A DNA stretch of 64,000 bases from Stenocarpella maydis (lineage: Eukaryota; Ascomycota; Sordariomycetes; Diaporthales; Diaporthaceae). The position numbers were made by a program, and so were the translations under genes. The notes beneath the pieces are model-generated. The model was not told the DNA's origin and made no database searches. It saw nothing but the letters and a program-made list of their open reading frames with translations. Each line of letters opens with the position of its first letter. Position 1 is the first letter of the stretch. This document shows, piece after piece, positions 16,745 through 21,010 of this stretch. The stretch lies in the NCBI GenBank assembly GCA_002270565.1, contig NQMI01000117.1, forward strand, positions 15,817 through 79,816, in the 5' to 3' direction.

Positions 16745-19700
16745 TCAACTCTTCTCAACCTCATTTTTGGGTATCCGGGCGGAAAGATCGCGGATGACAT
16801 AAACTTGCCCATACAGATCCACTTGCTGGGCCCAGAATTTCAAAACCGCCAGGCGCCGTCTGCTCAGTCTTGCTGAAATCCTTGATCCGACCAGATCTTG
16901 ATTGTGGCGTGCTTCCTCCTCAATTAGCCGGAAAATCTCGAGATACGAGTCTCGCTCAAACTCGGCCAGCCTGAGCAGGGCGTCCTTCTGCGCCTGGAGC
17001 TCTGAGCCCTTCTGCTGACCGCCAAATTCGGGAAAGTCGAGAGAGTTCAGGTTTCCCTCATCATTGTCTCGCTCCGCAGAACCCAGATCGTTATACATGC
17101 GACACATGGTGGCCAAGTGGCGGCACAAATCGGCTGCTAAGAACTTCTCTACGGGCGAGGGAAAACAGTCGCCGCTGCCGCCCGAGGTGGACTTTGGAGT
17201 CAACACTGCTCCTAGATGGCAAGCTATGAAATGGAACGAGTAGGGGCATGAGATGGTGTCTGCAGATGTGTTCCGCACCCAGTTGAAGAAGGTCAAGTTA
17301 TGTATGGATTTGGTATTTCCAGACAATCTCGGCCCATTTTGCGAGACGACACCATTCTTGTGCTCATCATGATACGTCGGGTCGCTGTCGTCGGCCTGTT
17401 GAACATGGGAGAGGAGATAGTTAAGCATCTCGCGTTTGAGAAGTATTCGGTCCCAGGCGCTGGCCGACTGAATTGAGGGATGTTGCAAGACATGCCGGGT
17501 GAACGTCGAAAGTGTAGAGAAGACAAGCTTGTATTCGGGGCTCTTGGCCTCGCCACGGGTGTCCTCCGACGCCGAGTCATCAATGGTAGAGACATCTTCG
17601 ACACCAGAATCTGAATCTTTGTCCCTGATGCCACCAGTACGGTGCTGCGTTACAGTGTTGCGAAGAAGGGGCAGATCGCGGATGAGGCCACGCAAATTAT
17701 CCATGCGGCCCCGGAACAGGACACCTGCTGTGGCCTCCATGAACTCATCGAGTTGGAAATTGAGCATGGCGATGAAACACATGTCGTAAAGGAATACAGT
17801 AGACGCGTAAGTGCGTTCAAGGTTGTTGACTGCGGTCCAGAAGAAGGGCACGACATCGAGGTATTTGTCCTCGTCGACGTCCTGGCGCGGGAACACGTCG
17901 AGCCGGTGCGCCCGCAGCATGGGGGTGAATAGTGCCGCCTCAATCAGCGATGCGCGGAGTTCCCACTCAGGGAGAGACTTGAGGAGATCAGTCTGGTGGA
18001 ATAAACGAACGTGCTTGTCGAGACCTTCCCTCGGAGGTGTCCAGAGACTTGATCCTACGCGAGGTCTGGAAGCTGCCGTAGATTTGGCGGCGGCCCACCG
18101 CGCGGCTGTGAGGTATGACTGGGTCAATAAAGGTGACGCATAGCTGACCTTCTCGATCCAAATATAGTTCAACCCAGAATTCCAGCTAGCCGAATCCACG
18201 AAGCCAAGTCCTCGCTGGATGGCCTCATGAAGGGGTCCGCTCAGCTGATCGAAAAAGGCCACACGGCATGCCTCCGCGAGAATCAGGATGCCGTAAGCTG
18301 TCCCCTCAACGGAGCTTTGCCACGAACCATCTGCTTCTTGGTCCAGTAGCGGTCGCAAGCAGGCCTGAAACAGTGTGATGGCAACCCTGAACTGAAGCTC
18401 CTGGTCCAGAACGCCGGGCAGCTTTCCTTGTTCCAGCAGGTCTGTCAGGTCAACTAGCACTTCAACCAGCAGGACAGATGGATACAGATAGCAAGTGTTC
18501 CACTTGTCTTTTATCTCTTTATCAGCCTGCCACCAGCAGTTGCACAGAAACTTCGTGATCTTTTGAATTTGCCTGCTGTAACTCATCACATCTGGCTGGT
18601 GGAGAAGCGCCGAGAGCACATTGCAGTTAGCAGTAAAGCTCGGATCCCTTTCACCCAGATAAGTGCGGAAGTGCGTATCAGCTTCAAATTCCTTGATCAT
18701 CTGTTGGGGACTGGCATGGTGGCCTAGCAAGGTTAGAGCAGTGATAGCTTTTGCAGTATCGTCCACATCTGCCTGAAAACCGGGAGCTGTGATCGTCAGT
18801 CAAAATTAACGAAAGAACCTTTGGACAAGCTTGTCTAGTCATGATAGGATGTATATTCACGACATACCGTAACCAATAGTACCGCCCTCCCTTTCAAACG
18901 AGTATTTGAGCATTTCCACCATCTTATCCAACTCGGCACATGCCAGATGCGGAGCCGAAAAGCCTGCTCGAAGCAGTGTCGTCAAGATCTGGGATCGCAA
19001 ATTTTTCAGTCAGATGACCTGGATTAAGCAATGACTGGATAACTCACCCAAGAAGACTCGAAATGCGACGAAGGGAAGGCACTGGGAACGGCTCCTATGT
19101 TCTGACCAGCACCGTGTCTGATGACATGGCGCAGATAAGCCTCTGACTCCTCATCCCACTGCGAGGCATGCATCAAGTATGCCGCCGTGGATGATGGGGA
19201 GCCAAGCATTGAGCCGCGCGTCTTGTGGTGCCGTACTCTATTGAAGTCTATTTTCCCGATGAAAGCCTCTAGAGAGTGCAGTGCTGTCATAGGCTGGTCG
19301 CCATAGAGGTACTCGGGCCGGAATCGCGACATTTTCGCGTTGTGAATCTGCATCAAGGGCTCGCGCGCCGCAAAATCAAACACCAGAGAAGGGTCCTCGG
19401 CCTCGAGATAGTCCAGCATGGCTGGAACGATTATCTCGAATCCAACATGCTCTGTTGTTGATATATCTAGGGTCGCCAGCTGAGAACGCAGAGACGTAGC
19501 TGCCATCTCGGCACGCCTGGTCAAGTCTTCGCTCTCTTGATAACTGACCCCGGCTCTGACGTGGCGCTTCAAGGCAAGCAATGAAGCAGCTGTGTTGAGA
19601 ATACCATCAATAGGTGCGTTATTGCCAGTCTCCCAGCCACCTGAAGGTGACTGCGTATCCAATAGAGACTGGAAGGACTCTGGAAAAAGCCATTGCTTGT

Positions 19701-19857
19701 GTCCGTCGATTGTTTTGGTGATCATTGATACCCACGCTGTATCATAGGCCGCACAACTCATTGTGCCAAAACCATGGTGCTCGTCGTAGTCTTCAAGCGC
19801 TCTTTGAATCAAAGATTTCGCCTGGGAGACAAGTTTGTTGTCAAATTCGGTGATCAT
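16745..19857 (-). CDS. Bifunctional diterpene synthase (ent-CPS/KS-like)
   Basis: Three exons on the minus strand give one frame of 990 aa: 19857-19048, 18988-18868, 18786-16745, with introns GTGAGT..CCCAG (59 bp) and GTATGT..CACAG (81 bp). An upstream in-frame ATG at 19941 would add 28 residues. The length fits fungal bifunctional copalyl diphosphate/kaurene synthases (about 940-960 aa). Visible motifs are AYDTAW (residues 37-42), class II acid motif DVDD (317-320), class I metal motif DEFME (657-661, a variant of the usual DEFFE), and NDLGSAERD near 876 followed by EGNLNSLDFPEF. Such enzymes cyclise geranylgeranyl diphosphate first by protonation and then by ionisation, giving kaurane-, aphidicolane- or pimarane-type skeletons; the product cannot be read from sequence. 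It is divergent from a broken P450 at 20521, which supports a former diterpenoid cluster. No disabling mutation was seen. Confidence 0.9.
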
Positions 19858-20520
19858 AATGATTGAGAAACGGGGTGCAATCTCTTGAGTCTTGTTCTTA
19901 GGAGCAAAAGATCGAGCCGGGGTCGATGGAGACACAGTCAAGTGGGTAGATATCCAAACACGAATGCCAACCTTTGAGAGACATACATGGTCCTCGTACG
20001 TGAATCCTCACACACAAAATACTCTCTTTATAATTAATGGCTAACTGAACATACCCAGCCCGTGGTCCGTGCTGAACTGATTCTGCGAAAATCACAACCG
20101 CGCACCCGCCTCTCGCAATTGCACCCCCTGTCCCCGGATCCGAGTCAGCTTCTGTTGTGCAAGGCGTGTTTCGGCATGCAGATGCTGCGTTCGGAGGACC
20201 AAAAGGAGCCGCGCCGGCGTATCTTACAAGGGTCACGAAGACTGGGGGCTCCACTAACACGATCTTGGCGTCAAAAGGTCGAGCAAGTACGCTTGCAGCA
20301 ATGACAGCAGCCACGCCAATTAATCAAACCTATTAACAGACGTCGGACTCCCTCTGACGCGTTGGATCCAATCCAACATAGCCTACGGCATACTTTTTGC
20401 ACCATCTCTGAGCCGCCTATGATGAGTTCGATCATGGATGATTCCATCTTGCTGGGCCAATAGAAAATCATTCAACTAAGGACGCTCCTCAGCCGCAGCG
20501 ACCATGCCAATCAGTATACT
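19858..20520. promoter_or_regulatory. Bidirectional promoter region, synthase / P450 relic
   Basis: About 0.6 kb between two divergent gene starts. It is of mixed composition with no convincing coding frame. Overlapping open frames on both strands (for example 19898-20314) show no recognisable domain. It is expected to hold the synthase promoter; no specific operator was identified. Confidence 0.4.
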
Positions 20521-21010
20521 ATGATTGCATCCACCGCTGGAATGGCCGTCACCTTCATCTGCCTCTGTTATAAAGCCTACTGGTACTTGGAAGGTCTGAA
20601 CTTGAGTCATCTCCCTTGAGCTGGAAAGACTGTTGGATGGCTTGGCCTTGGAGTGACTGAGGCGAAATGAGACTTCAAGGTGAAAGGGCGAAGGATCCTC
20701 TATGAGGGATACCATAAGGTAGGGGGCGTCCCGCTCTAGCCGTTGAGGGACCCACTCGCTATTGAGACTGACCTGTATTGCGACTTTCTGTGCTCAGTGG
20801 AAGAATAGAATGGTCTGCATACAGACTTTAAGTGTAGAGCGGGTTGTATTGAGCCCTAAATACGTTGAGGAGATCAACATGAGTGTGCCTGAAGATGCTT
20901 TGGATATGGCCGATGGACTGAGCGAAAGGCTACTCAGCTTTTAGATGAATCTGGATGTGGTCTTCCAGAGTACCCTATACATTGAAGTCTGTTATGTTGA
21001 TAATTTCCTC
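20521..21010 (+). pseudogene. Cytochrome P450 fragment (CYP68-like), RIP stops
   Basis: A P450 N-terminal part starts at ATG 20521 with a membrane anchor (MAVTFICLCYKAYWYL). It continues through RRILYEGYHK, then an intron GTAGGG..GCTCAG (20719-20797), then VERVVLSPKYVEEIN and PEDALDMADGLSE and DVVFQSTLYIEVC. The order and wording fit the N-terminal third of fungal CYP68-type enzymes, the group that includes gibberellin-pathway oxidases. Three in-frame stops interrupt it: TGA where Trp or similar is expected after HLP, TGA in place of an Arg codon before DFKVKG, and TAG after LLSF. All are explained by C-to-T or G-to-A changes. After about 21010 the frame runs into AT-rich DNA and the haem-binding half is absent. 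It would have acted in the ER, oxidising the product of the adjacent synthase (inference). Confidence 0.75.

What the first reader, a model, noticed from the sequence alone, without database searches (positions are those of the whole stretch)
16745..21010. Remnant diterpenoid biosynthetic locus: intact bifunctional synthase beside a RIP-killed P450
The synthase keeps DVDD, DEFME and the NDLGSAERD region over 990 aa, while the divergent P450 (CYP68-like wording) carries three stops all explained by C-to-T/G-to-A changes and lacks its haem half. An intact DHA2 exporter lies 6 kb away. A live scaffold-forming enzyme without its partner oxidase could accumulate a hydrocarbon or alcohol product different from the ancestral one.
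Basis: partly seen in the sequence, partly recalled or inferred. Interest (0 to 1): 0.75.

Follow-up and report, generated by a model that had tools for sequence, protein, structure and literature searches.

The report
Diterpene gene cluster split by decay
An intact fungal enzyme gene for making a diterpene skeleton sits beside a wrecked copy of its usual partner oxidase, but an intact oxidase and the precursor-making enzyme survive elsewhere in the same genome, so the pathway looks scattered rather than lost.

Summary
The synthase (window 16745-19857, minus, three exons, 990 aa) is intact, with DVDD, DEFME and NDLGSAERD. The P450 beside it (20422-20991) keeps only about the first 30% of the protein, has four in-frame stops and ends at repeats. 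Three corrections. (1) The synthase belongs to a conserved trio, synthase + P450 + GGPP synthase, seen in Diaporthe and other ascomycetes (diail_10006/10007/10008). The P450 remnant belongs to that P450 lineage. (2) The oxidase is not lost: an intact P450 of this lineage (86% to Diaporthe amygdali) lies next to an intact GGPP synthase on contig C44, at least 33 kb away. The two loci complement each other. (3) RIP did not clearly kill the P450: its RIP indices are those of normal genes; only the AT-rich flanks are RIP-like. Trees suggest, with moderate support, that synthase and remnant come from another cluster copy than the C44 genes: reciprocal loss. The synthase's branch is about three times that of its two nearest relatives, yet it is constrained. 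The genome also holds one degraded near-full-length synthase, pieces of two more and a broken GGPP synthase. Product and expression are unknown.

The parts
19048..19857 (-). synthase exon 1 (residues 1-270)
   Evidence: homologs
18868..18988 (-). synthase exon 2
16745..18786 (-). synthase exon 3, with DVDD, DEFME and NDLGSAERD, to the stop
20422..20712 (+). P450 remnant, block A (exon 1 of the relative), three stops in frame
20801..20991 (+). P450 remnant, block B (start of exon 2 of the relative), one stop; DNA homology ends here
20992..21127 (.). block abutting the break; one other copy at 93% on contig C312 (plus a 41-base match there)
21126..21472 (.). about 347-bp dispersed repeat; 26 of the 34 matches other than itself begin within 8 bases of its left edge (my count from the table)
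11000..16400 (.). AT-rich flank (GC 0.26) with RIP-like dinucleotides
21140..25800 (.). AT-rich flank (GC 0.32) with RIP-like dinucleotides
8350..10560 (+). DHA2-like MFS exporter in its own GC island; cluster membership untested; outer limits and exons by eye

Best explanation
The synthase is the surviving skeleton-forming enzyme of a three-gene labdane-related diterpenoid cluster (synthase, P450, GGPP synthase). This fungus, probably a Diaporthe or close relative, carried two diverged copies of the cluster. In copy A (this window) the synthase survived while the P450 was truncated at repeats and the GGPP synthase was lost from the locus. In copy B (contig C44) the P450 and GGPP synthase survived and no synthase remains beside them. 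The pathway most likely still runs in trans: C44 GGPP synthase makes GGPP, the window synthase cyclises it (class II protonation at DVDD, then class I ionisation at DEFME/NDLGSAERD), and the C44 P450 oxidises the product. Shown: the genes, their intact reading frames, the trio in relatives (by locus tags and contig lengths), and that the other synthase loci found here are degraded or partial. Inferred: two copies with reciprocal loss, cooperation in trans, activity and expression.
For: Trio: diail_10006/10007/10008 are synthase, P450 and GGPP synthase; FOCG_18114/18115 and QQS21_007450/007451 are P450 and synthase. 21 of the 35 best-scoring P450 relatives share the exact longest-contig length of a synthase relative, and eight contig lengths hold all three genes (I gave it 55 of 120 listed synthases, 35 of 111 P450s, 49 of 120 listed GGPP synthases). 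C44 P450 has an open frame, a Pfam P450 match and haem-loop and ExxR motifs (by eye), and sits beside an open GGPP synthase. Complementary loss: tblastn at E 0.01 finds no synthase on C44:1-10000, and no further part of a C44-type P450 and no GGPP synthase in the window plus about 10 kb on either side (its one other P450 match there, at 34078-34716, is an unrelated 22% one). Different histories: the C44 GGPP synthase pairs with jgi31722 (96/94); that pairing is rejected for the synthase (p-AU 0.0015); P450 block A falls outside C44 + D. amygdali (85/84). Constraint on the synthase: neutral runs free of stops are 13 of 200 at 0.05, 0 of 200 at 0.1 and 0 of 200 at 0.2 replacements per site, and 93 of 97 near-invariant columns are kept.
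Against: The synthase's place in its tree is not firmly resolved: best with D. ilicicola and lgn16647 (92/91, no starred set), but grouping with the whole D. amygdali type is not rejected (p 0.15), nor is a place outside both types (p 0.08), and its long branch could mislead. The supports around P450 block A (84-85) are moderate and block B is unresolved. The broken GGPP synthase on C118 could not be placed. 14 of the 35 P450 relatives had no synthase of equal contig length. An unassembled synthase next to the C44 contig end cannot be excluded. No expression or chemistry is available.
Confidence: 0.6

Rival explanations
1. One reading: the synthase has lost its oxidase, so an unoxidised hydrocarbon or alcohol accumulates.
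For: The adjacent P450 is broken. The genes are no longer side by side, so co-regulation may be lost (inference).
Against: A P450 of the same lineage with an open frame sits beside an open GGPP synthase on C44.
Confidence: 0.15
2. One cluster only: P450 and GGPP synthase moved to C44, a tandem P450 duplicate was left as the remnant, and the synthase is the single ortholog that simply evolves fast.
For: Only one open synthase of this lineage was found. Placing it with the D. amygdali type is not rejected (p 0.15).
Against: The sister place that the C44 GGPP synthase takes is rejected for the synthase (p 0.0015). P450 block A lies outside C44 + D. amygdali (85/84).
Confidence: 0.25
3. The synthase is itself silenced or newly dying in its AT-rich block; the open frame is recent inertia.
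For: It sits in a 4.7-kb island between RIP-like blocks, its branch is 0.33 against 0.11-0.12 for its two nearest relatives, and the other labdane-type synthase loci found in this genome are degraded or partial. At only 0.05 replacements per site 13 of 200 neutral runs still show no stop.
Against: Open frame with consensus splice sites and catalytic motifs; neutral runs gain about 5 stops at 0.1 replacements per site; other rows of the clade also reach branches of 0.22-0.28.
Confidence: 0.2

Closest known systems
Diaporthe ilicicola diail_10006/10007/10008 and the D. amygdali copalyl diphosphate synthase (P0001, P0002)
   Same: 74% and 73% identical synthases over nearly the whole length; D. 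ilicicola has the trio with consecutive tags, D. amygdali synthase and GGPP synthase share a contig length
   Different: Here the genes are on two contigs, with a broken P450 at one. Names are the sources' own.
Fusarium oxysporum FOCG_18115 synthase and FOCG_18114 P450
   Same: 68% (synthase) and 77% (P450, to the C44 one) identical; neighbours by locus tag
   Different: Its best listed GGPP synthase (FOCG_17856) is on a contig of another length, so partial dispersal may occur elsewhere too
SonA of Paraconiothyrium archidendri (P0009)
   Same: 54% identical over nearly the whole length
   Different: The one search by that name listed no paper about it, so its product cannot be carried over
Aphidicolan-16-beta-ol synthase of Neocamarosporium betae (P0080) and a Diaporthe protein named phyllocladan-16-alpha-ol synthase (P0102)
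   Same: 43% identical over 99%; bifunctional type (recalled)
   Different: Too distant to predict stereochemistry or product
AsPS/AsCPS two-enzyme pathway of Arthrinium sacchari (PMC10999977, part 1 of 2 of the text read)
   Same: labdane-related, clustered with a GGPP synthase gene
   Different: There the two activities are in two proteins; here one protein keeps both motif sets

Membership tests
Fungal bifunctional labdane-related diterpene synthase (CPS/KS type) | DXDD class II motif (recalled) | tested here: met
   DVDD at 317
Fungal bifunctional labdane-related diterpene synthase (CPS/KS type) | Class I aspartate-rich motif D(D/E)XX(D/E) (motif form recalled) | tested here: met
   DEFME at 657, same letters in P0001-P0003
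Fungal bifunctional labdane-related diterpene synthase (CPS/KS type) | Second metal motif NDXXSXXX(E/D) (form recalled) | tested here: met
   NDLGSAERD at 876; P0001 has NDVGSAERD, P0002 NDLGSAERD
Fungal bifunctional labdane-related diterpene synthase (CPS/KS type) | Alpha-beta-gamma domain build | tested here: inconclusive
   Full-length homology; PDB search was made with exon 3 only and its two strong matches cover residues 2-227 of it; Pfam class I model under its cut-off, 19.3 of 23.7 bits; no fold was run
Fungal bifunctional labdane-related diterpene synthase (CPS/KS type) | Makes a cyclic diterpene from GGPP | not testable with these tools
   needs enzyme assay
Synthase + P450 + GGPP synthase cluster | The three genes adjacent | tested here: not met
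   Only synthase and a P450 remnant on C20; P450 and GGPP synthase on C44
Synthase + P450 + GGPP synthase cluster | Each gene present with an open frame somewhere in the genome | tested here: met
RIP-inactivated gene | High TpA/ApT and low (CpA+TpG)/(ApC+GpT) | tested here: not met
   P450 remnant 0.67 and 1.54; AT flanks 1.24-1.29 and 0.78-0.91; D. amygdali RIP regions 1.26 and 0.63, normal 0.65 and 1.28 (PMC12526002, passages). The remnant is only 570 bases, so light RIP is not excluded
CYP68 (gibberellin-type P450) | More than 40% identity to named members (rule recalled) | tested here: inconclusive
   The hit named after GA14 synthase is 35% to the C44 P450; no authentic CYP68 was compared

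The most novel reading that the evidence does not exclude
Two anciently diverged copies of a three-gene diterpenoid cluster lost complementary genes, so that one working pathway is now assembled in trans from two repeat-embedded islands, while the surviving synthase, freed from its old partners, evolves about three times faster than its nearest relatives and may be changing its product.
Probability: 0.4. Interest if true: 0.55.

Novelty: new member of a known kind. Interest (0 to 1): 0.42.

Why it matters
It is a testable case of how a fungal biosynthetic cluster comes apart: the breakpoint, the remnants and the surviving parts are visible in one genome, and relatives with the trio give the likely starting point. 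It also warns that a dead gene beside a synthase does not mean a dead pathway step; the whole genome must be searched.

Tried and rejected
Adjacency as proof of partner loss: rejected after the genome search found C44. Hybrid genome as source of two copies: one test gene (ATG17-like, window 36728-37855) has a single match and the housekeeping-like GGPP synthase on C123 is single, so not supported, but only two genes were looked at. P450 at window 32702-34818 as a replacement oxidase: 22% identical to the C44 P450 and beyond the AT block, so dropped. Recovering the missing P450 part: none in the window plus about 10 kb each side; a genome search with exon 3 of the C44 P450 gave, apart from C44 itself, a best match of 34% and none above 48% (110 of 138 candidates scored). 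Reading RIP from change types: in the P450 blocks GC-to-AT changes outnumber the reverse (9, counting two stops, against 2, with 7 transversions and 3 multiple), a bias that ordinary mutation also gives; not conclusive. In the C118 GGPP synthase remnant it is 14 against 2 with 8 transversions, so some RIP there is possible. C118 remnant as the missing copy-A gene: its three best BLAST matches are of the D. ilicicola type, but narrowly (47, 47, 45 against 45% for D. amygdali), and it is unplaced in the tree on a very long branch. Papers: searches; I read the listings, part 1 of PMC10999977, and passages of PMC9609704 and PMC12526002, and saw no paper on this cluster; the library lacks most subscription journals. 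Product prediction: dropped; the nearest protein with a gene name (SonA) is 54% and the nearest with a recalled function 43%. No structure prediction was run.

Full report
What is there. The window lies on contig C20 (15817-79816) of a 53.5-Mb genome in 312 contigs. On the minus strand, 19857-16745, three exons encode a 990-residue protein without stops; introns are 19047-18989 and 18867-18787. It holds DVDD (317), DEFME (657) and NDLGSAERD (876). Of 408 homologs 120 are listed, and the named ones are from fungi; the best are D. ilicicola diail_10006 (74%), D. amygdali (73%) and F. oxysporum FOCG_18115 (68%). The gene sits in a GC-normal island of about 4.7 kb between AT-rich blocks whose dinucleotides look RIP-like.

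The P450 beside it. Blocks 20422-20712 and 20801-20991 on the plus strand match the first 165 or so residues of a 539-residue P450 on contig C44; DNA identity is 67% over 487 aligned columns from 20525 on. Four in-frame stops are present. DNA homology stops at 20991, against a 136-bp block seen once more on C312 and then a 347-bp dispersed repeat. No further part of this P450 and no GGPP synthase is in the window or about 10 kb either side. The remnant's RIP indices are those of ordinary genes (comparison values from passages of PMC12526002). Truncation plus ordinary mutation explains it as well as RIP does.

The partner was not lost. On C44 a P450 with an open frame (1059-2855, two introns, 539 residues) lies next to an open GGPP synthase (3358-4539, opposite strand). 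The P450 is 86% identical to D. amygdali N8I77_013310 and 77% to diail_10007; the GGPP synthase is 75% to D. amygdali and 68% to diail_10008. Upstream of this P450, where C20 carries the synthase, C44 turns AT-rich within about 400 bp (GC 0.20 over its first 650 bases) and no synthase is detectable in C44:1-10000. From the contig lengths, the nearest possible join of C20 and C44 puts synthase and P450 at least about 33 kb apart.

A conserved trio. Locus tags and shared contig lengths show synthase, P450 and GGPP synthase together in Diaporthe, Xylaria, Poronia, Periconia and metagenome contigs: eight contig lengths carry all three, ten synthase and GGPP synthase, one P450 and GGPP synthase; 21 of 35 close P450s are on a contig of the same length as a synthase's (inputs were 55 of 120, 35 of 111 and 49 of 120 listed hits). 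Equal contig length is strong but indirect evidence; DNA of those contigs could not be read. It is not universal: 14 of the 35 P450s had no such match, and F. oxysporum's best listed GGPP synthase is on a contig of another length.

One history or two. In the synthase tree (17 rows) the window protein joins D. ilicicola and lgn16647 (92/91, no starred set) on a branch of 0.33 against their 0.11 and 0.12; other rows of the same ten-row clade run from 0.046 to 0.28. The C44 GGPP synthase pairs with jgi31722 (96/94) and the C44 P450 joins D. amygdali and jgi31722 (94/90). Forcing the synthase to pair with jgi31722 is rejected (p 0.0015); joining the whole D. amygdali type is not (p 0.15), nor a place outside both types (p 0.08). 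P450 block A falls in a clade with the Diaporthe and Fusarium trio P450s (100/98) but outside C44 + D. amygdali (85/84); block B is unresolved. The simplest reading is two diverged copies with complementary loss, but the support is moderate.

Is the synthase alive. Compared with 103 homologs of 900-1060 residues, 4 of 97 near-invariant columns differ; 17 of the 103 homologs differ at as many or more, and their median is 1. At columns otherwise constant among six full-length proteins it departs at 27 of 448, against 7 of 428 for each Diaporthe relative, 24 of 445 for Fusarium, and 44 of 465 and 54 of 475 for the two more distant rows; in the C-terminal set of nine it departs at 29 of 384, against 4-14 of 359-369 for the others. 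The excess is spread over the protein. Neutral runs of the coding sequence give about 2.5, 4.8 and 9 stops at 0.05, 0.1 and 0.2 replacements per site, with 13, 0 and 0 of 200 runs free of stops (substitutions only, no indels). So it evolves fast but has most likely been under selection for most of that time. Expression is unknown.

The rest of the genome. A second labdane-type synthase on C39 is degraded: 73% to a D. helianthi protein over residues 285-969, with two stops opposite conserved residues, four more in alignment gaps (which may be introns), and residues 42-93 not aligned, though 62157-63809 reads open. C274 keeps only residues 1-188 of a synthase (63-66% to Diaporthe proteins; no stop in its main piece, one in a small overlapping alignment); C310 has pieces (37%, two stops, plus a weak stretch near residues 520-634). 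A GGPP synthase remnant on C118 has three stops. Diaporthe proteins are the best matches at four loci (C20, C39, C44 and C274), which suggests that the host is a Diaporthe or near relative; this is inferred, not shown.

Verdict.

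Noticed in passing
G000:C39:60900-63810 (L018:4900-7810): Second, degraded labdane-type synthase (73% to a Diaporthe helianthi protein over residues 285-969), two stops opposite conserved residues, with AT-rich DNA on its left.
   Followed up: partly
G000:C118:9150-9668 (L025:5160-5663): First 167 residues of a pathway-type GGPP synthase with three stops, cut off at AT-rich DNA, next to what reads like a tyrosine phosphatase gene (by eye).
   Followed up: partly
G000:C274:204300-204870 and G000:C310:102000-102950: Pieces of two further diterpene synthases; the C274 piece resembles Diaporthe proteins, one of them named phyllocladan-16-alpha-ol synthase.
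   Followed up: partly
window 4082-4555 and 25845-26318: An 88% identical inverted repeat pair that flanks the exporter, synthase and P450 remnant.
   Followed up: no
window 32702-34818: An unrelated P450 about 13 kb from the synthase, beyond the AT block (intactness not tested), near ATG17-like (36728-37855), DUF1275 (43039-43740) and Sir2-like (62837-63580) genes.
   Followed up: partly
P0234 and P0266 (Diaporthe sp. PMI_573): Another Diaporthe has this GGPP synthase on contigs of two lengths, one of the two predicted proteins short with an odd end, hinting that duplication and decay recur.
   Followed up: no
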